DNA of 40,942 bases from Spirochaetales bacterium (GCA_028532905.1 JAQQAM010000276.1:1-40942), one strand, 5' to 3'; counted from the first letter of the stretch, positions 11,244 through 31,921 are shown. Notes: generated by a model not told the origin, from the sequence alone. A program made the numbers and translations.

Positions 11244-11271
11244 TTGACTAAAGTAGCCGTACAGGTATAAT
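11244..11271 (+). promoter_or_regulatory. Sigma-70-type promoter for the TPR/greA operon
   Basis: TTGACT (11244-11249), 16-bp spacer, TATAAT (11266-11271). It points rightward and would give a leader of about 43 nt before the ATG at 11321. Together with the rpe promoter it forms a divergent pair less than 100 bp apart. Confidence 0.75.
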
Positions 11272-11320: not shown

Positions 11321-12262
11321 ATGAGTGATACAGAGATAAAAAAAGACATAGATGAATATCTCGAAGATGTCTATCGCTCTACTGCGAGGAGAGAGCTTGA
11401 TGAGGCTCTTTCTGTCCTGGATAAGGCATATTCTGTAGATTTTGACCGCAAGGAACTGGCGGGACTTCTCAGGATGCTGAAGTTCTGGAAGGAACGCTGG
11501 AACAGAATGACCGACTTTACCGGTCCATATGAGAAAGGAGACTACCTTCTGAAACAGTGGGATCAGTTTACAGACTGGTCTGACCGGAACAGAAGTATTG
11601 CTCCTGAACGGGGTATTCAGTCCCTGAAGTATATGGTTCATTCGGAAGCCCTCGGCTGTTACGAACAGCTGCATCTGAATGACAATAATGATTTGGAACT
11701 GCACCTGGGCATAGGACGATGCAATAAGGTGCTGGGGAATTATGAGAAAGCAGTCACAATCCTTGAAAAAGGAGCCAAAATAAACAGAGAAAACTCTGAG
11801 ATTCTGGCAGAACTGGCTGATACTTATGCCCTCGTAGATGAAATGCAGGGGGCGAAAATATTTTTTCGTGAGGCTTTTTATCTGAGTCCGGAACAGGTTG
11901 ATCTTTCAAGACTTGAATCCGGACTGATAAAAAAGCTGATTGAGAAAGTCAAAGAGACCGGAATTACTGATGATGAGATCTGCGAATGGATTCCTGTATA
12001 TGGAGTCATTTACGGAGTGTTCAACATCAAGAGAGAGATGCGCCCCATTGAGTATGGTAAACTTAAGCAGTCGATCTTCTCTCTTCAGAATGAGATCCGG
12101 CAAAACAGTGAGAACGGGAAGCTGGTGCCCCGTTTAATAAACAGGTACTTCTGGCTTATTGATCATTATATAAGCACTAAAGAAGACAGAAAAACGATTG
12201 ACGAGGTTCTTATGAATATCAAATTGCTCAACCCGTCAATTTACCGGCAGTACATAAACTAA
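11321..12262 (+). CDS. Cytoplasmic TPR-like protein upstream of giant GreA
   Basis: A 313-residue, mostly helical and acidic protein with no signal peptide or membrane segment. Residues ~90-190 contain recognisable TPR units (LELHLGIGRCNKVLGNYEKAVTILEKGAKINRENSEILAELADTYALV). The C-terminal third is helical without clear repeats and ends in a NPSIYRQYIN tail. I do not recognise a named family. It starts the operon driven by the promoter at 11244-11271. The giant greA gene follows 22 nt later, and both proteins carry helical repeats of a similar kind. I infer that the two products may act together, for example as a scaffold on the transcription machinery, but nothing in the sequence proves it. 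Confidence 0.82.
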   Translation: MSDTEIKKDIDEYLEDVYRSTARRELDEALSVLDKAYSVDFDRKELAGLLRMLKFWKERWNRMTDFTGPYEKGDYLLKQWDQFTDWSDRNRSIAPERGIQSLKYMVHSEALGCYEQLHLNDNNDLELHLGIGRCNKVLGNYEKAVTILEKGAKINRENSEILAELADTYALVDEMQGAKIFFREAFYLSPEQVDLSRLESGLIKKLIEKVKETGITDDEICEWIPVYGVIYGVFNIKREMRPIEYGKLKQSIFSLQNEIRQNSENGKLVPRLINRYFWLIDHYISTKEDRKTIDEVLMNIKLLNPSIYRQYIN

Positions 12263-12284
12263 AGCAGGAGTTAAGACAAGAGTT

Positions 12285-14978
12285 ATGTCAGATGAAATGA
12301 TCAACAAAATCAACGATCTATTAAATGAAGAAAAATGGACCCGAGCGGCGCTGAGTAATTATACTATTAAAAATTTCGAGGAACTGGATGAAACTGTAGA
12401 AGAAATTCTGAGCTCCCAGATCCAGAATGAAATTAAGGATATGTGTGATGAACATCTGGAGCATTCCAAGAACAGCATCATCGGTCTTTATATTTCAGGA
12501 ATCATTTCTCTGGATAAACAGCAGATTGACGACTCCCACCTTGTTGAACTCATTAATATTTTTTCCGGAAACCATAAGTGGAATATTGTTGAATTCCTCT
12601 GTGAACGGATCCTCCGTTTCGGAGAAAACAAGATGGCTCTCCGTGTTCTGTCTGAATGCTACAGCAACGAAGAACGGTACGATGAGCTGTACTCCATCTG
12701 GGAAAGACTCATAAAAATTGACTACAACGAAGCAGACATTGTAAAGAAGCTTGCCGAGAAATATGAAGATGAGGGTAAAACTGAAGAAGCCGTCAGCTAC
12801 TATAAAAAGGCTATCCACAGATACATCAACAAGAATCTTTTTACGAATGTAAAGGATATCTGGGCCAAGCTGATTGAGCTCAGCCTTGACGATCTTGAGT
12901 TCTTCCTCCTGGTTGAGAAAAAGATTGCCAAGATCATGTCTATAGAAAAATCCACAATCCTTCTGGAAGACCTCTACCCTGCAATAGAGGAGAAAGGCGA
13001 ATGGAATACGGCTATTGATATTCTGAAACAGATTCTTCAGTACGATCCCAAGAGCCCCTGGGCCAGAAAAGAGATTGTTAACTGCTACAGAAAACAGCAT
13101 GAAGGACACAGCCAGCTGGAAGAGTACATTAAACTGTCCAACCTGAATCAGAGCTGGAGAAATATCACCGAAGCGATCTCAGACTTTGAAAAGCATATAT
13201 CCTTTGATGCCGGAAACTTTGTTTACCACAAAACCTGGGGTGTCGGTGTTATCCGGGAGATCAAAGGGGATGAAATTACCATAGATTTTGCCGCCAAAAG
13301 AGGACACAGCATGTCTCTTAAAATGGCCGTAAACGCACTAATGAGTCTTACCAAGAACCACATCTGGGTTCTGAAAAGCATACTCCCCAAAGAAAAACTT
13401 CATGCCAAGGTTAAAAAGGATATCCCCTGGACCCTGAAGACTGTCATCAGAAGTTTTGATAATGCCGCCGATATGAAGCGGATGAAAGCCGAACTTGTAC
13501 CTGCCATACTGACACAGGGCGAGTGGTCCAGCTGGAGCACAGAAGCCAGAAGAATTCTGAAAACCGACGCCGATTTCGGCAACATGCCTGAAAAACTGGA
13601 TCTTTTCATGGTTAGGGACAAACCCATCACCTTTGAAGAAAAGACCTTTAACAGATTCAAGGCTGAAACCAACTTTTTTGACAGATACCAGACAATTCTG
13701 GAGTTCTTGAGAGAATCCGATCCCGATTCAGACTATTTCTCTGAAATGTTCAATTATTTCACAGCCTTCCTGAAGGCGGCCAATGTAAATGAGCAGGTTG
13801 TGTGTTCCTATCTCTTTGTAACAAAGATTATCAAGGACTTTCCTTTCCTCAATCCCGGAATCAACTACGGATTTAAGGAAGTTTTCGACGATATTGAAGA
13901 TCTTGAACTCACCTTCAATGCCATTCAGTATGCGGATCTTAAACGGGATTTTCTGCAGGAAGTCAAAAACAATATCGAAGACTGGCAGGTTTACTATATC
14001 CAGCTCTTCCCCTACTACCTCCACAAATCCGTTGTTGAAGATCTGATCAGCAAGGGTTTTGACAATCTGGTAAAAGACAAGCTGCAGGATATCATGACTC
14101 ACTTCAGAGAATTCCGCGAAGCCTTTCTCTGGATTGCCAAATCTGCCGTTGAGGAGCCCTGGTTCACCTCTCTGGGAATATCCTACGAAAAGATTCTGAT
14201 CAATATGATCCACCTTCTGGATATTACATTCAGAGATATCAGCAACAAGAGAAATGTAACAGAGAATAAAAAACTCAACAGAGCCATCCAGACCTACCTT
14301 TTCAAAGAGAACAGACTGGAAGACTTTATCCTCAGCGGTGATGAAGACACAGTATCCCGCCTGTTCACTCTTCTGCAGGATGTTAAAGAGATGGATGTTA
14401 CTGTTGTTCTGGCTATCCGTCAGAAAATCAAGGATAAATATCCCAAGATCCGTTTTCTCGGCGAAAAAGAGGAAACACCCGTTGTTACGGCAACCCGTTC
14501 TCTCATTGTTCTGGAAGAAAGCCTCCGGGACAAACAGAAGGAACTCAAACACATCCTCGAAGTGGAAGTTCCCCAGAACTCCAAAGAAATTGGTATTGCC
14601 ATTGAAATGGGTGACCTTAAAGAGAATGCCGAATACAAAGCCGGTAAGGAAAAACAGGAAGCCCTCAACATACAGGTTGGCAAGCTGAAAGAAGGAATAG
14701 AAAAGGCCAAGGTTTTTGATCCCTCCACTCTGGATCTGAAGAAAGTATCCTTCGGAACCAAAGTCACTCTGACCAACGACCTGACCAGCGAAGAAGAGAT
14801 CTACACCATCCTGGGTCCCTGGGAATCAGATCCTTCCAACAATATTATCTCCTATGTGTCTCCCTTCGGTTCTGCCATTATGGGTGTGAAACTGAACAAG
14901 TCCACCAAGTTCACCATCAATGAAAAGGATTATGCCTACACGGTAAGTGCTATTGAGAAGGCAGATCTGGTTAAATAA
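12285..14978 (+). CDS. greA: Giant GreA: helical-repeat / Tudor-like / GreA fusion
   Basis: GreA rescues backtracked RNA polymerase by stimulating transcript cleavage. Here the GreA module is only the last ~164 of 897 residues (from about 734). Its coiled-coil tip motif GDLKENAEYKAGKEKQ is intact, with the acidic tip residues D777 and E780 matching E. coli GreA D41 and E44. The C-terminal globular domain follows (~815-897). Residues 1-305 are TPR-like helical repeats (RYDELYSIWERL, EDEGKTEEAVSYYKKAI). Residues ~308-355 (GNFVYHKTWGVGVIREIKGD) resemble the small SH3/Tudor-like fold of CarD, Mfd and the UvrD C-terminus, which contacts RNA polymerase; this is my inference from pattern. The middle (~360-730) is helical and unassigned. 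Borrelia and Treponema carry similarly long GreA proteins, so the length is a lineage trait, not a misassembly. Confidence 0.93.
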   Translation: MSDEMINKINDLLNEEKWTRAALSNYTIKNFEELDETVEEILSSQIQNEIKDMCDEHLEHSKNSIIGLYISGIISLDKQQIDDSHLVELINIFSGNHKWNIVEFLCERILRFGENKMALRVLSECYSNEERYDELYSIWERLIKIDYNEADIVKKLAEKYEDEGKTEEAVSYYKKAIHRYINKNLFTNVKDIWAKLIELSLDDLEFFLLVEKKIAKIMSIEKSTILLEDLYPAIEEKGEWNTAIDILKQILQYDPKSPWARKEIVNCYRKQHEGHSQLEEYIKLSNLNQSWRNITEAISDFEKHISFDAGNFVYHKTWGVGVIREIKGDEITIDFAAKRGHSMSLKMAVNALMSLTKNHIWVLKSILPKEKLHAKVKKDIPWTLKTVIRSFDNAADMKRMKAELVPAILTQGEWSSWSTEARRILKTDADFGNMPEKLDLFMVRDKPITFEEKTFNRFKAETNFFDRYQTILEFLRESDPDSDYFSEMFNYFTAFLKAANVNEQVVCSYLFVTKIIKDFPFLNPGINYGFKEVFDDIEDLELTFNAIQYADLKRDFLQEVKNNIEDWQVYYIQLFPYYLHKSVVEDLISKGFDNLVKDKLQDIMTHFREFREAFLWIAKSAVEEPWFTSLGISYEKILINMIHLLDITFRDISNKRNVTENKKLNRAIQTYLFKENRLEDFILSGDEDTVSRLFTLLQDVKEMDVTVVLAIRQKIKDKYPKIRFLGEKEETPVVTATRSLIVLEESLRDKQKELKHILEVEVPQNSKEIGIAIEMGDLKENAEYKAGKEKQEALNIQVGKLKEGIEKAKVFDPSTLDLKKVSFGTKVTLTNDLTSEEEIYTILGPWESDPSNNIISYVSPFGSAIMGVKLNKSTKFTINEKDYAYTVSAIEKADLVK

Positions 14979-16052: not shown

Positions 16053-18185
16053 TCAGTTCTGATCAATACCGCGCATGGAACAGGAAATTCGTTTTCTGGG
16101 GATATCCACATCCAGAATCTTCACTTTAACCTTCTGTGCCACTTTCACAATATCCGAGGGGGAAGACACATAGCGGTCGGCCAGCTGGCTGATATGAACA
16201 AGCCCATCCTGATGAACACCAATATCCACAAAGGCTCCGAATGCGGTGACATTGGTTACAATACCGGGGAGAATCATCTCTTCCTGAAGATCCTCTATGG
16301 AGTTGACATCCTTCTCAAACTCAAAAAAGCTGAACTCCTCCCGGGGGTCCCGGCCGGGCTGCTTCAGTTCATCAATAATATCCCGGAGGGTTTCCATTCC
16401 CCGGTTTTCCTCGACAAACTGTTCAAGGGGAAGGCTTTCCACCGCTTCCGGAGTCTTGAGAAGATTATCAATCGAAATACCGAGTCTGGTACTCAGCTCT
16501 TTAATAAAGGGATACTGTTCAGGATGGATCCCCGTATTATCCAGAGGGTTCTTTCCGTTTCTGATCCGCAGAAAACCCGAGGCCTGTTCAAAGCACTTGG
16601 CTCCTACACCCTTAACTTTTTTCAGATCATTTCGGGATTTGAAAGCCCCGTTTTCATCCCTGTAGGCCACAATGGCAGCAGCTGTCCTGGCATTCAGACC
16701 GGAAACATAGGATAGAAGCTGTTCACTGGCCGTATTGAGCTCAACACCCACAGAGTTGACACAAAGCATGACCACCTCATCCAGAGCCTCCTTAAGAAGT
16801 TTCTGGTTCACATCATGCTGATACTGTCCCACACCAATGGACGAAGGATCCAGCTTCACAAGTTCCGCCAGAGGATCCATCAGCCTGCGGCCGATGGACA
16901 CGGCTCCCCGGACAGTCAGATCATAATCGGGAAACTCCTTTCGGGCGGTTTCGGAAGCAGAGTATATTGAAGCGCCACTCTCATTCACCAGAACCACGGG
17001 GATTTCTTTCAGACAATCCAGAGACAAACAGAACTGCTGCGTCTCCCGTCCTCCCGTACCATTGCCGACCGCCACAGACTCAATGCCGAACTCGTTAACA
17101 TACTTTCTGATTTTGCCCATTGCATCATCTGTTTTGCCATGGGGCTGAAGAGGATAGATCACATCATGAGCCAGAAGCTTCCCTTCGGGACTGAGACAGA
17201 CAAGCTTACAGCCCGTTCGCAAGCCCGGGTCAATAGCCAGAGTGGCTTTCTGCCCCAGAGGAGGTTCCATCAGCAGGACCCTCAGATTCTCAGCGAACAC
17301 ACGAATAGCCTCACGGTCCGCTTCTTCTTTCAGATTCTTTTTCTGTTCAGTTTCCAGACTGGGTGCCAGAAGACGCTTATAGCAGTCCTTCTCGAGATCT
17401 TCAACGAAACCATCCCATCTTCTGCTGTGTACAGGGCTGGACCGGTGAAGAGTGCTCATAGCCCGATCCTCTTCAGGTCTGATTTTCAGTTTGAGATATC
17501 CCTCTTCCGCCCCTCTGTACATGGCCAGAATTCTGTGCGACGGCGTTCTGGCTGAGATCTCTTCCCGGTTGAAATAGTCCCTGTATTTCTGTCCTTCCTC
17601 TTCTTTGCCTTTGACAGGCTTACTGAATAAAAGAGATTTCTCTTTGAACAGCTGACGCATATTCTGACGGACAGAGCTGTCTTCATTCATAAGGTCCGCC
17701 AGAATATCAGAAGCACCCTGCAGGGCTTCATCCCAGCTCTCGGCCTGTCCCTCAGACCCGTAAAATTTAGTTTTTTCAATACGGGCCGGATCAGTATTAT
17801 TCAGAATCAGATCAGCCAGGGGTTGAAGCCCCTTTTCCACTGCCGCCATTCCTCTGGTTTTCCGCTTTTGTTTATAAGGTAGATACAGGTCTTCCAGTAC
17901 AGCAGGATCCCTGCACTCTTGAATCTGTTGTTTTAGCTGTTCAGTGAGCTTTCCCTGGGATTCAATGGATTTTAGAATGGTGCCGCGCCGTTTATCCAGT
18001 TCCTGGAGCTGTTCATATGTTTTGATAATGGATGAGATGACCACCTCATCCAGATTGCCGGTTTTTTCTTTTCTGTAGCGGGCCATAAAAGGGACTGTCG
18101 CCCCTTCTGCCGCCATTTCCAGTACGGTAGAGACGGTCTGTTCCCTGAGAGAAAGCAGACCTGCTGTTTCTTTAATATTTGTCAT
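16053..18185 (-). CDS. tex: Tex family RNA-binding transcriptional accessory protein
   Basis: A 710-residue protein with the complete Tex (Spt6-like) layout. It has an N-terminal helical Tex_N region (1-185), a YqgF/RNase H-like domain from about 313 (KATLAIDPGLRTGCKLVC), tandem helix-hairpin-helix motifs at about 490-550 (LNARTAAAIVAYRDENGAF; DLKKVKGVGAKCFEQASGFL) and a C-terminal S1 domain at 637-706 (GIVTNVTAFGAFVDIGVHQDGLVHISQ). In other bacteria Tex binds nucleic acid and affects transcription and stress tolerance. The gene is monocistronic by appearance. The ATG at 18185 lies 6 nt after a -10 box and has no Shine-Dalgarno, so its mRNA is probably leaderless. Confidence 0.96.
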   Translation of the reverse strand: MTNIKETAGLLSLREQTVSTVLEMAAEGATVPFMARYRKEKTGNLDEVVISSIIKTYEQLQELDKRRGTILKSIESQGKLTEQLKQQIQECRDPAVLEDLYLPYKQKRKTRGMAAVEKGLQPLADLILNNTDPARIEKTKFYGSEGQAESWDEALQGASDILADLMNEDSSVRQNMRQLFKEKSLLFSKPVKGKEEEGQKYRDYFNREEISARTPSHRILAMYRGAEEGYLKLKIRPEEDRAMSTLHRSSPVHSRRWDGFVEDLEKDCYKRLLAPSLETEQKKNLKEEADREAIRVFAENLRVLLMEPPLGQKATLAIDPGLRTGCKLVCLSPEGKLLAHDVIYPLQPHGKTDDAMGKIRKYVNEFGIESVAVGNGTGGRETQQFCLSLDCLKEIPVVLVNESGASIYSASETARKEFPDYDLTVRGAVSIGRRLMDPLAELVKLDPSSIGVGQYQHDVNQKLLKEALDEVVMLCVNSVGVELNTASEQLLSYVSGLNARTAAAIVAYRDENGAFKSRNDLKKVKGVGAKCFEQASGFLRIRNGKNPLDNTGIHPEQYPFIKELSTRLGISIDNLLKTPEAVESLPLEQFVEENRGMETLRDIIDELKQPGRDPREEFSFFEFEKDVNSIEDLQEEMILPGIVTNVTAFGAFVDIGVHQDGLVHISQLADRYVSSPSDIVKVAQKVKVKILDVDIPRKRISCSMRGIDQN

Positions 18186-29410: not shown

Positions 29411-31921
29411 ATGAATAAGAGTATAAAGCTGTTTGGATTATCTCTGATACTTATCCTGTCACTGACATCGTGTATGACTGCACCGGAAGTTGTGGAAGAA
29501 CCGGAACCTCAGATTGAGGAAGAGAATAGTAATGACAGTCTTCATTCTCTGGTTCAGAACAGAAATACGGCCGGGCTGGAAGAGCTCTTTAAAATAAATG
29601 TTGATGTAAATGAGCGCAATGCAGACGGACAGACCGCTCTGCATGTTGCAGCTCAGGCCGGGAACAGCGAGATAGCCAGGCTCCTGCTTTTTCAGAAAGC
29701 TGATCCCGATGCCCTGGATAACAACGGAAAGACTCCTCTCCATCTGGCTATGGCAGGGGGACATGATGAAACCGTATCCGTTCTGGTGGAAGGCGGTGCG
29801 GATATCTATGTAAAAGATCAGAGCAGTCAGAGCCCTGTGGAAAGCGGTTTCGGTAACATCAGCCTGATTAAAGCCATGGTCAGAAAACAGAATGTCAACA
29901 GCGGGACCGTTGCAGAGGGCACCCTGCTCCATAAAGCCGCGGCTTCTGGCAATATTGATGCGGCTGAGTACATTCTGGCCATGGGAGGAAATCCCAACAT
30001 AACAAACAATGCCGGCAAACTGCCCCTGGATATGGCCCATGAAGACCGGATCAGCAGGGACAAAGCTAAGATTGCCTCTCTTCTGGTCAAAGCAGGATCT
30101 TTCAGAGCAGAAAATGAGAAATATGCCTATTTTCACACCCTCTACAGCCAGAACGACATCAATTACAGATTTGATTTCAGTCAGACAGCCCTCCATCTGG
30201 CAGCGGAACAGGGTCATGAAGGTGTGCTGAGCCTCCTTATGGAAGAAGGGGCGGATCTGGATGCCAGAGATAAACCGGGCAATACCGCTCTTCACAGTGC
30301 TGTACGGGGGGGATATAAAAACATTGTCACCATGCTTCTCAATGCCGGGGCTGATGTGAATGCAACAGACTACAACAGCAATGTGCCTCTTCATATGGCC
30401 ATGACCCATGACAATGACACAGAGATCCTCAGAATACTCCTTTCTGCAGGAGCCGATGTAAATGCCAAAAATAGCTTTGGCAATACGGCACTCCACCTCA
30501 GTGTCACACTGAACAAGGAGAGAACAGCAGCTGAATATATTCTGGATTACGGTGCCCAGCTGGAAAGCCGGAACAAAAACGGCAATACCCCTCTTATGGA
30601 AGCAGTGGACAGAGGAAACTCTGAAGTGGCCATCCTCCTTTTACAGAGAGGAGCTGATATCTTTGCCAGAAACAACCTGAGTGAAACACCTATCAGCATG
30701 AGTCTGACACGGGGTGTCCCTACACTGAGCTGGTTTATGGACAGCAGCAATATAAATGCCCAGGATAATGAAGGAAACACCTCTCTTCATATGGCCGTCC
30801 TGATGGGTGTGAATGCTGATGTGTACCGTTTTCTCCTGGAAAACGGTGCCGGAATCGACACAAGAAACTATTCCGGTGATACCCCCATGCATCTGGCTGT
30901 ACGAAAAGAGATCACGACTCTCACTTCCGAGTTTCTCAAGAAAGGCGGCGATTTTTATATTGAAAACAACCGGGGAGAAACACCCCTGTCTCTGGCCTTT
31001 GATAAGGGACCGGATTTTGTGGATGCCTTTCTGATCGATCAGGTACTGGAAAAGAAAGACAGCATGAACTACACCCCCCTCTTCCACGCGGTTCTCTGGG
31101 AAAAACCGGATATTGTCCGTGTTCTTATCGACAGAGGGGCCGATATAAACCGCATGAGTCTCACCGGGTCTACTGTACTGCACGAAGCGGTAAAAACAGG
31201 ATCGGTACAGATCACGGGAATACTTCTGAGAGCCGGAGCGGATGTTAACAAGACGGACAACAACGGAAATACGGCTTTGCATGAGATTGTTTACTGGAAT
31301 TCCCTGAACCTGGCAGAGCTTCTTATCGATTCCGGTGCCGATCTGAACCGCAAAAACCTGCTGGGACGATCTCCCTTCTACGAAGCCGTCATCAATGGAG
31401 ACTTTGAAATGTGCAGTTATCTGATCAAGCAGGGTGCTGATCTAGAAACAAGAGACAACAGCGGCAAGACTCCTTTATTTGAAACTATTATTTCCGGGAA
31501 TCCGGCACTTATGGAACTTCTGGTCAGCCAGGGCAGCTCCATTCAGAAAAGGGACAATCAGGGGAATACCCCTCTCCATGCAGCAGTTATTGTGGACAAT
31601 ACGGAAGCCGTGGAGTATCTGTTTAATCTGAATGCCGATATATTCGCTACCAATAAAAACAATGCCTCTCCCCTGACTCTGGTCATACGGAAAGGCTCAG
31701 AATATGTGGATGCCTTTATGACACTGGAAAATATCAATGCCAGGGACAATAACGGCAACACAGCCCTTCATATTGCCGCTGCCATGAAAGCGTCTGTGGG
31801 AACCCTGCAGGTTCTTATTGACAAAGGCGGGGACAAAGAAGCCAGAAACAATAAGGGACAGCGCCCCTATGACAGAGCAGTGGAAAGCAGATACGAAGCT
31901 GGTCTGGATATTCTGAAATAA
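29411..31921 (+). CDS. Large ankyrin-repeat lipoprotein
   Basis: An 836-residue protein with a lipoprotein signal peptide (LSLILILSLTSC; Cys21) followed by an acidic Pro/Glu linker (about 22-42). About 23-24 ankyrin repeats then fill the protein to its end (e.g. GNTALHSAVRGGYKNIVTMLLNAGADVNATD). Most are 33 residues. Four units starting near residues 140, 425, 523 and 752 are shorter (about 31) and share the pattern SPLTLVIRKGSEYVDAFM-like, breaking the array. Such long tracts make a solenoid that binds protein partners. The protein should sit on the membrane, facing the periplasm or outside. AAGGA precedes the ATG by 5 nt. Its terminator is shared with udk. Confidence 0.93.
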   Translation: MNKSIKLFGLSLILILSLTSCMTAPEVVEEPEPQIEEENSNDSLHSLVQNRNTAGLEELFKINVDVNERNADGQTALHVAAQAGNSEIARLLLFQKADPDALDNNGKTPLHLAMAGGHDETVSVLVEGGADIYVKDQSSQSPVESGFGNISLIKAMVRKQNVNSGTVAEGTLLHKAAASGNIDAAEYILAMGGNPNITNNAGKLPLDMAHEDRISRDKAKIASLLVKAGSFRAENEKYAYFHTLYSQNDINYRFDFSQTALHLAAEQGHEGVLSLLMEEGADLDARDKPGNTALHSAVRGGYKNIVTMLLNAGADVNATDYNSNVPLHMAMTHDNDTEILRILLSAGADVNAKNSFGNTALHLSVTLNKERTAAEYILDYGAQLESRNKNGNTPLMEAVDRGNSEVAILLLQRGADIFARNNLSETPISMSLTRGVPTLSWFMDSSNINAQDNEGNTSLHMAVLMGVNADVYRFLLENGAGIDTRNYSGDTPMHLAVRKEITTLTSEFLKKGGDFYIENNRGETPLSLAFDKGPDFVDAFLIDQVLEKKDSMNYTPLFHAVLWEKPDIVRVLIDRGADINRMSLTGSTVLHEAVKTGSVQITGILLRAGADVNKTDNNGNTALHEIVYWNSLNLAELLIDSGADLNRKNLLGRSPFYEAVINGDFEMCSYLIKQGADLETRDNSGKTPLFETIISGNPALMELLVSQGSSIQKRDNQGNTPLHAAVIVDNTEAVEYLFNLNADIFATNKNNASPLTLVIRKGSEYVDAFMTLENINARDNNGNTALHIAAAMKASVGTLQVLIDKGGDKEARNNKGQRPYDRAVESRYEAGLDILK

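What the first reader, a model, noticed from the sequence alone, without database searches (positions are those of the whole stretch)
11321..14978. Giant GreA carrying a Tudor-like RNA polymerase-binding module, paired with a TPR partner
The GreA module (from about residue 734, tip acids D777 and E780 intact) is fused to ~730 residues of other sequence. These include TPR-like repeats and, at about residues 308-355, a segment whose pattern (VYHKTWGVGVIREIKGDEITIDF) resembles the SH3/Tudor domains of CarD, Mfd and UvrD that bind RNA polymerase. The preceding gene encodes another TPR protein 22 nt upstream under a shared promoter. Long GreA proteins are known from Borrelia and Treponema; a Tudor-like module in them and a dedicated partner are, to my knowledge, not described. 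It could be a spirochaete transcription-rescue scaffold.
Basis: partly seen in the sequence, partly recalled or inferred. Interest (0 to 1): 0.75.

Follow-up and report, generated by a model that had tools for sequence, protein, structure and literature searches.

The report
RNA-polymerase-docking GreA scaffold and TPR partner
Nearly all spirochaetes carry a large helical protein with a small docking domain of the kind DNA helicases use to grip RNA polymerase, paired with a second helical protein and in most lineages fused to the RNA-rescue factor GreA, which suggests an uncharacterised polymerase-associated complex.

Summary
A 313-aa TPR protein and an 897-aa protein ending in GreA lie 22 nt apart behind a good sigma-70-like promoter. 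Residues 308-355 are a Tudor-type domain matching the RNA-polymerase-binding C-terminus of PcrA/UvrD helicases (profile-profile probability 96.5%, score 45.5; best of 150 shuffles 17.1), with weaker resemblance to CarD/Mfd. Residues aligned with those PcrA needs to bind RNA polymerase are among the most conserved in the protein. The partner is real: it sits just upstream in 92 of 142 surveyed spirochaetes, a full-length copy is detectable elsewhere in most others, and it is missing from two genomes that also lack the scaffold. The interpretation needs shifting. Seven families have scaffold and partner without fused GreA (30 of 30 genomes keep the adjacent partner), and one family has deleted GreA's catalytic tip. 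The conserved unit is the Tudor-TPR scaffold plus partner, with GreA a detachable tool. The long form is already a named NCBI family, and its Tudor and middle regions match the chlamydial GreA fusion, so it is not spirochaete-only. RNA polymerase docking and binding between the two proteins remain inferred.

The parts
11244..11271 (+). predicted sigma-70-like promoter TTGACT-16-TATAAT serving both genes
   Evidence: 11 of 12 consensus matches, about 50 nt before the first gene; a pattern match, not proof
11321..12262 (+). TPR partner protein, 313 aa
   Evidence: TPR_19, TPR_8, TPR_2 over cut-off; AlphaFold mean pLDDT 94.1, all helical; adjacent upstream in 92 of 142 genomes and 72 of 80 named loci
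12285..14978 (+). long GreA / scaffold protein, 897 aa (NCBIfam NF011309)
   Evidence: 1063 bits against cut-off 714; AlphaFold mean pLDDT 86.4
12288..13199 (+). N-terminal TPR-like helical solenoid, residues 2-305
13206..13349 (+). PcrA/UvrD-type Tudor domain, residues 308-355; H315, G321 and F335 invariant in 69 of 69 homologues
13362..14438 (+). second helical solenoid, residues 360-718, shared with the chlamydial GreA fusion
   Evidence: residues 376-731 alone match NF004969 at E 2.7e-9
14463..14495 (+). low-confidence linker, residues 727-737 (pLDDT under 50)
14502..14960 (+). GreA domain, residues 740-892
   Evidence: PF03449 and PF01272; Foldseek to GreA 9a7t_B TMt 0.84 and 1grj TMt 0.80
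14613..14624 (+). GreA tip D777-L-K-E780, catalytic acids intact
   Evidence: D and E in 30 of 30 fused domains

Best explanation
The operon encodes a two-protein assembly associated with RNA polymerase. The large protein is an elongated scaffold: a TPR solenoid, a PcrA/UvrD-type Tudor domain, a second helical solenoid, and a GreA domain on a flexible tether. The Tudor domain most likely clips the scaffold to the beta subunit of RNA polymerase, as it does for PcrA/UvrD, while the tethered GreA coiled coil enters the secondary channel and stimulates cleavage of backtracked RNA. The TPR partner most likely binds the scaffold and links it to something else, possibly the ribosome. Shown here: the domain anatomy, the Tudor identity, partner co-occurrence and linkage, and that GreA is an optional module. 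Inferred: Tudor-RNAP docking, scaffold-partner binding, and the purpose of the link.
For: Tudor identity: with a five-strand beta module in the AlphaFold model. PcrA residues needed for RNAP pulldown are H681, W684, K712 and L714 (PMC5397179). By the H-x-x-W motif and the UvrD alignment these correspond to H315 (69/69), W318 (W 50, F 14), H341 (H/R/Q/K) and M343 (68/69). The stretch around the Tudor domain is the most conserved of the whole protein across 69 homologues. Partner: adjacent upstream in 72 of 80 named loci, mostly within 60 nt, and in 92 of 142 genomes including 30 of 30 GreA-less ones; full-length copy elsewhere in most others; scaffold and partner both undetected in the f28 genomes. 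GreA optional; fused GreA domains form one clade (100/99) apart from free-standing GreAs. GreA is present in RNAP purified from B. burgdorferi (PMC7237435); the putative Borrelia family f5 has the long form. Linker of low confidence before GreA.
Against: The published helicase-interaction motif of RpoB ([VIL]Dxx-TGE-[VIL][VILT], PMC8318588) is absent from the window organism's RpoB and from all 30 spirochaete RpoB loci read, by strict match, so the docking site is unidentified. The PcrA lysine K712 is replaced mostly by histidine. Tudor domains also bind other proteins; UvrD's also binds UvrB. The partner is unlinked in about 24 genomes and undetected in a few that have the scaffold (G010, G013). 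No complex was modelled and no interaction data were found.
Confidence: 0.55

Rival explanations
1. The anchor and the tool are swapped: GreA (where fused) tethers the scaffold to RNA polymerase, while the Tudor domain binds something else such as a UvrB-like repair protein, a ribosomal protein or nucleic acid. The complex then serves repair or translation coupling rather than transcript cleavage.
For: UvrD's Tudor domain also binds UvrB (PMC8318588). No canonical RpoB motif in spirochaetes. Where separated, the partner gene sits directly behind a hibernation-promoting-factor gene in all five f12 genomes examined, behind DUF520/YajQ in three f36 genomes, or behind a ~700-aa conserved gene with weak Rad50/AAA-like matches in f25/f14/f37/f41.
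Against: GreA-less scaffolds keep the Tudor domain, so GreA is not a needed anchor there; those lineages would need another route to RNAP or none at all.
Confidence: 0.25
2. An ordinary long GreA: the extension only tunes GreA activity or stability, and the neighbour is a housekeeping TPR protein.
For: Already named as GreA by NCBIfam NF011309; the tip is conserved in most lineages.
Against: Seven families keep scaffold plus partner with no fused GreA (30 genomes); family f34 keeps the scaffold with the tip deleted and no GreA_N match in any of five genomes; the Tudor stretch is more conserved than the GreA domain as a whole.
Confidence: 0.1
3. Gene adjacency reflects a shared promoter only; partner and scaffold do not touch each other.
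For: In 24 of 116 surveyed genomes with a clear partner, plus the weak cases, the two genes are apart.
Against: Adjacency in 30 of 30 GreA-less genomes and across very divergent families (partner identity down to about 20%), plus joint absence in f28.
Confidence: 0.1

Closest known systems
NCBIfam NF011309 / PRK14720, 'transcription elongation factor GreA' (906-position model)
   Same: Full-length match, 1063 bits, positions 2-905: the same protein family, already named
   Different: The model names only GreA; its title records no Tudor domain, no partner, and not that the first ~730 residues occur without GreA
NCBIfam NF004969 / PRK06330, 'transcript cleavage factor/unknown domain fusion protein' (chlamydial, from own knowledge of PRK06330)
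   Same: Tudor segment (E 3.4e-4) and middle helical segment (E 2.7e-9) match it without the GreA part
   Different: Lacks a counterpart for most of the N-terminal TPR region (match begins near residue 243); no chlamydial sequence could be fetched, so a partner there is untested
PcrA/UvrD C-terminal Tudor domain (PF21196; 5DMA, 7EGT)
   Same: Homologous Tudor domain with corresponding RNAP-contact positions
   Different: Internal in a TPR scaffold rather than at the end of a helicase; K712 position usually histidine; canonical RpoB target motif not found
CarD / Mfd RNAP-interaction domain (PF02559)
   Same: Most individual homologues match it weakly (43 of 56)
   Different: Profile comparison weaker (73%, 22 columns, two-sequence profile) than with PcrA/UvrD
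Canonical GreA/GreB
   Same: GreA fold and catalytic tip D/E intact
   Different: Fused GreAs are a separate clade from free-standing spirochaete GreAs (100/99)
Ctr9 of the eukaryotic Paf1 complex
   Same: TPR elongation scaffold among the Foldseek hits (9hvq_Q, 7dkh); analogy only
   Different: Whole-model TM-scores are about 0.1, as expected for any TPR solenoid; no homology claimed

Membership tests
GreA transcript cleavage factor | GreA N-terminal coiled coil and C-terminal domain, both over Pfam cut-off | tested here: met
   57.4 bits (cut-off 24.5) and 70.6 bits (cut-off 26.9); fold match TMt 0.84
GreA transcript cleavage factor | two acidic residues at the coiled-coil tip | tested here: met
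   D777 and E780 present; 30 of 30 fused homologues; deleted in family f34
GreA transcript cleavage factor | stimulates RNA cleavage by backtracked RNAP | not testable with these tools
   needs biochemistry
PcrA/UvrD-type Tudor domain | profile similarity beyond controls | tested here: met
   hhalign probability 96.5, score 45.5 against 17.1 best of 150 shuffles; PDB top hits UvrD and PcrA
PcrA/UvrD-type Tudor domain | single window protein reaches the Pfam gathering score of PF21196 | tested here: not met
   19.7 bits against 23.9; one homologue (G040) passes with 24.8. The assignment rests on profiles, so it is called Tudor-type, not a curated Pfam member
PcrA/UvrD-type Tudor domain | residues matching PcrA H681, W684, K712, L714 | tested here: inconclusive
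   H315 invariant, W318 mostly W or F, M343 nearly invariant, but the K712 position is mainly His
PcrA/UvrD-type Tudor domain | five-strand antiparallel Tudor barrel | tested here: inconclusive
   AlphaFold strands 312-315, 319-327, 330-335, 341-344, 353-355; the domain could not be folded or fold-searched alone
PcrA/UvrD-type Tudor domain | target motif [VIL]Dxx-TGE-[VIL][VILT] in RpoB | tested here: not met
   absent in own RpoB and 29 others by strict match; reported to be absent from some other bacterial RpoBs as well (PMC8318588)
CarD/Mfd RNAP-interaction domain | profile similarity | tested here: inconclusive
   43 of 56 members at E up to 0.1; 73% over 22 columns with a two-sequence profile
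NF011309 long GreA | score over curated cut-off, full length | tested here: met
   1063 against 714 bits, positions 2-905 of 906
NF004969 transcript cleavage factor/unknown domain fusion | score over curated cut-off (697 bits) | tested here: not met
   151 bits: related, not a member
TPR proteins (partner) | TPR models over cut-off and helical solenoid fold | tested here: met
   TPR_19 34.1 bits against 25; AlphaFold pLDDT 94.1; TPR chains dominate the VIA list

The most novel reading that the evidence does not exclude
A phylum-wide, Tudor-docked RNA polymerase scaffold complex of two TPR proteins, shared in part with Chlamydiae, whose core job is not transcript cleavage: GreA is an interchangeable attachment, and the partner links elongating RNA polymerase to ribosomes or hibernation factors, a bacterial counterpart in kind to TPR-based elongation complexes such as Paf1C.
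Probability: 0.25. Interest if true: 0.85.

Novelty: new variant of a known kind. Interest (0 to 1): 0.64.

Why it matters
If right, nearly all spirochaetes carry an undescribed RNA-polymerase-associated complex, and in many of them it holds the only GreA the cell has. The natural series (fused, GreA-less, tip-less) separates the scaffold's own role from transcript cleavage and makes it directly testable. It would also show the helicase-type Tudor dock being used as a general RNAP-binding part outside helicases, and give a reason for the long 'GreA' of spirochaetes and chlamydiae, which databases label simply GreA.

Tried and rejected
Chance similarity for the Tudor segment: rejected by shuffled, reversed and other-window controls and by genome-wide ranking. 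Fission of the fused gene as the source of free-standing GreAs: not supported, fused and free GreAs are separate clades; the scaffold tree needs only one gain or loss of GreA, direction unrooted. Helicase-interaction motif in RpoB: not found by strict match; a conserved TGE near residue 110 and a near-motif in f14/f25 were seen but not over-read. Neighbour genes around the adjacent pair gave MurJ, HEAT-repeat-like and VWA-like proteins, no functional clue. Literature searches in the open library found no description of the Tudor module or partner; most subscription papers are not held.

Full report
OBSERVATION. The window holds two co-directional genes: a 313-aa protein (11321-12262) and an 897-aa protein (12285-14978), 22 nt apart. 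One strong promoter-like site, TTGACT-16-TATAAT, lies at 11244-11271. The long protein ends in a complete GreA with tip acids D777 and E780, and it is the only GreA-domain protein found in this genome. It matches NCBIfam NF011309 over its full length (1063 bits), so the long form is already a named family.

TUDOR DOMAIN. The single sequence gives only hints: PF21196 PcrA_UvrD_tudor E 0.029 on the whole protein, E 7.8e-4 for the segment alone, below the curated cut-off. Profiles settle it. Of 56 homologues across the phylum, 43 match CarD_TRCF_RID, 38 PcrA_UvrD_tudor and 21 DUF3553 at E up to 0.1. A profile search of PDB sequences returns eight hits, the two best being the C-terminal domains of UvrD (7egt, E 0.007) and PcrA (5dma, E 0.019). 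Against an alignment of spirochaete UvrD/PcrA C-termini, hhalign gives probability 96.5 and score 45.5 over 49 columns; 150 column shuffles reach at most 17.1, the reversed profile 9.6, and no scaffold window outside the Tudor region exceeds 12.8. In 41 genomes scanned whole with PF21196, the scaffold locus is the best or second-best place in 28, and first in the window's own genome (counted by hand against the scaffold coordinates). AlphaFold (mean pLDDT 86.4) puts strands at 312-315, 319-327, 330-335, 341-344 and 353-355 between two helical solenoids. The Tudor stretch is therefore of PcrA/UvrD type, with weaker CarD/Mfd resemblance.

CONTACT RESIDUES. In PcrA, H681, W684, K712 and L714 were mutated to test RNA polymerase pulldown, and the mutants bound poorly (PMC5397179). 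The H-x-x-W motif and the UvrD alignment place H315, W318, H341 and M343 at these positions. Across 69 homologues H315, G321 and F335 are invariant and M343 is 68 of 69; W318 is W in 50 and F in 14; position 341 is His, Arg, Gln or Lys. The region around the Tudor domain is the most conserved of the whole protein over all 69 homologues. This fits a retained binding surface, but the lysine is not kept.

PARTNER. In 80 named spirochaete loci the partner is directly upstream in 72, mostly within 60 nt; most of the other eight are near contig ends. Over 149 genomes, 142 have the scaffold and 116 a partner at E up to 2e-9; 92 pairs are adjacent, same strand, partner upstream (82 within 500 nt), 24 are apart. 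A partner profile finds full-length copies elsewhere in families f12, f23, f36, f40 and f42. Family f28 lacks scaffold and partner alike (completeness 91 and 78%). The partner is a confident TPR solenoid (pLDDT 94.1).

GREA IS A REMOVABLE MODULE. In seven families (30 genomes) the homologue is 725-757 aa and lacks GreA; all 30 keep the adjacent partner. Most of these genomes have a free-standing GreA elsewhere. Families f25, f14, f33, f37, f41 and f43 have both forms. Family f34 keeps a ~905-aa protein with the tip motif deleted, and none of its five genomes shows a GreA_N match. Fused GreA domains form one clade (100/99) apart from free-standing ones; on the scaffold tree GreA presence needs one change, direction unrooted. 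So the conserved unit is scaffold plus partner, and the giant-GreA view is lineage-specific.

BEYOND SPIROCHAETES. With GreA left out, residues 286-375 and 376-731 each match NF004969, a model of a 'transcript cleavage factor/unknown domain fusion protein' (E 3.4e-4 and 2.7e-9). That this model is chlamydial is own knowledge of PRK06330, not a tool result. On that basis Tudor, second solenoid and GreA are shared with chlamydiae; whether by ancestry or transfer could not be tested.

MECHANISM. Most likely the scaffold docks on RNA polymerase through its Tudor domain and carries GreA on a flexible tether (727-737) to the secondary channel, while the partner binds the scaffold and links it onward. 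Supporting data from outside: RNA polymerase purified from B. burgdorferi contained GreA by LC-MS (PMC7237435). Against: the published RpoB target motif of PcrA is absent from spirochaete RpoB by strict match, and Tudor domains have other partners such as UvrB. A hint for the onward link: in five of five f12 genomes examined the partner lies directly behind a hibernation-promoting-factor gene, and in three f36 genomes behind DUF520/YajQ. This is neighbourhood evidence only.

VERDICT. The protein is a member of a named long-GreA family; the Tudor module and partner were not found described in the held literature. Novelty: new variant of a known kind. Genome families f1-f44 are unnamed codes; calling f16 Brachyspira-like or f5 Borrelia-like is inference from genome size and kinship.

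Noticed in passing
L046 and L047 (family f34: G084, G059; also G052, G109): Long GreA homologue of about 905 aa with the catalytic tip motif GDLxENAEY deleted, and no other GreA_N match in the genome: a natural cleavage-dead form.
   Followed up: partly
L031-L044 (families f16, f10, f18, f19, f27, f32, f44): Scaffold of 725-757 aa without GreA but with the Tudor domain and adjacent partner; separate short GreA elsewhere in most.
   Followed up: yes
G025, G036 (family f28): Scaffold and partner both undetected, while a free-standing GreA is present.
   Followed up: partly
L236, L240, L246, L263, L264 (family f12): Partner gene directly downstream of an S30AE hibernation-promoting-factor gene in all five f12 genomes examined.
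   Followed up: partly
L233, L234, L237 (family f36): Partner gene behind DUF520/YajQ and an alanyl-tRNA-editing-like (tRNA_SAD, DHHA1) gene.
   Followed up: partly
L255-L262 (families f25, f14, f33, f41, f43, f37): Partner gene directly behind a conserved 690-720 aa gene; some members have weak RecF/Rad50-like AAA matches.
   Followed up: partly
L190 and other RpoB loci L183-L212: Spirochaete RpoB lacks the strict SI1 helicase-interaction motif; many carry a TGE near residue 110.
   Followed up: no
L009, L003, L011 and 35 other loci, downstream of the long GreA gene: Co-directional gene shortly downstream of the long GreA in 38 loci, one member with a weak von Willebrand A match.
   Followed up: no
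window 29411-31921 (+): 836-aa protein made almost wholly of ankyrin repeats.
   Followed up: no
window 16053-18185 (-): Tex, an RNA-binding transcription accessory protein (Spt6-like), lies close to the GreA operon in this genome.
   Followed up: no
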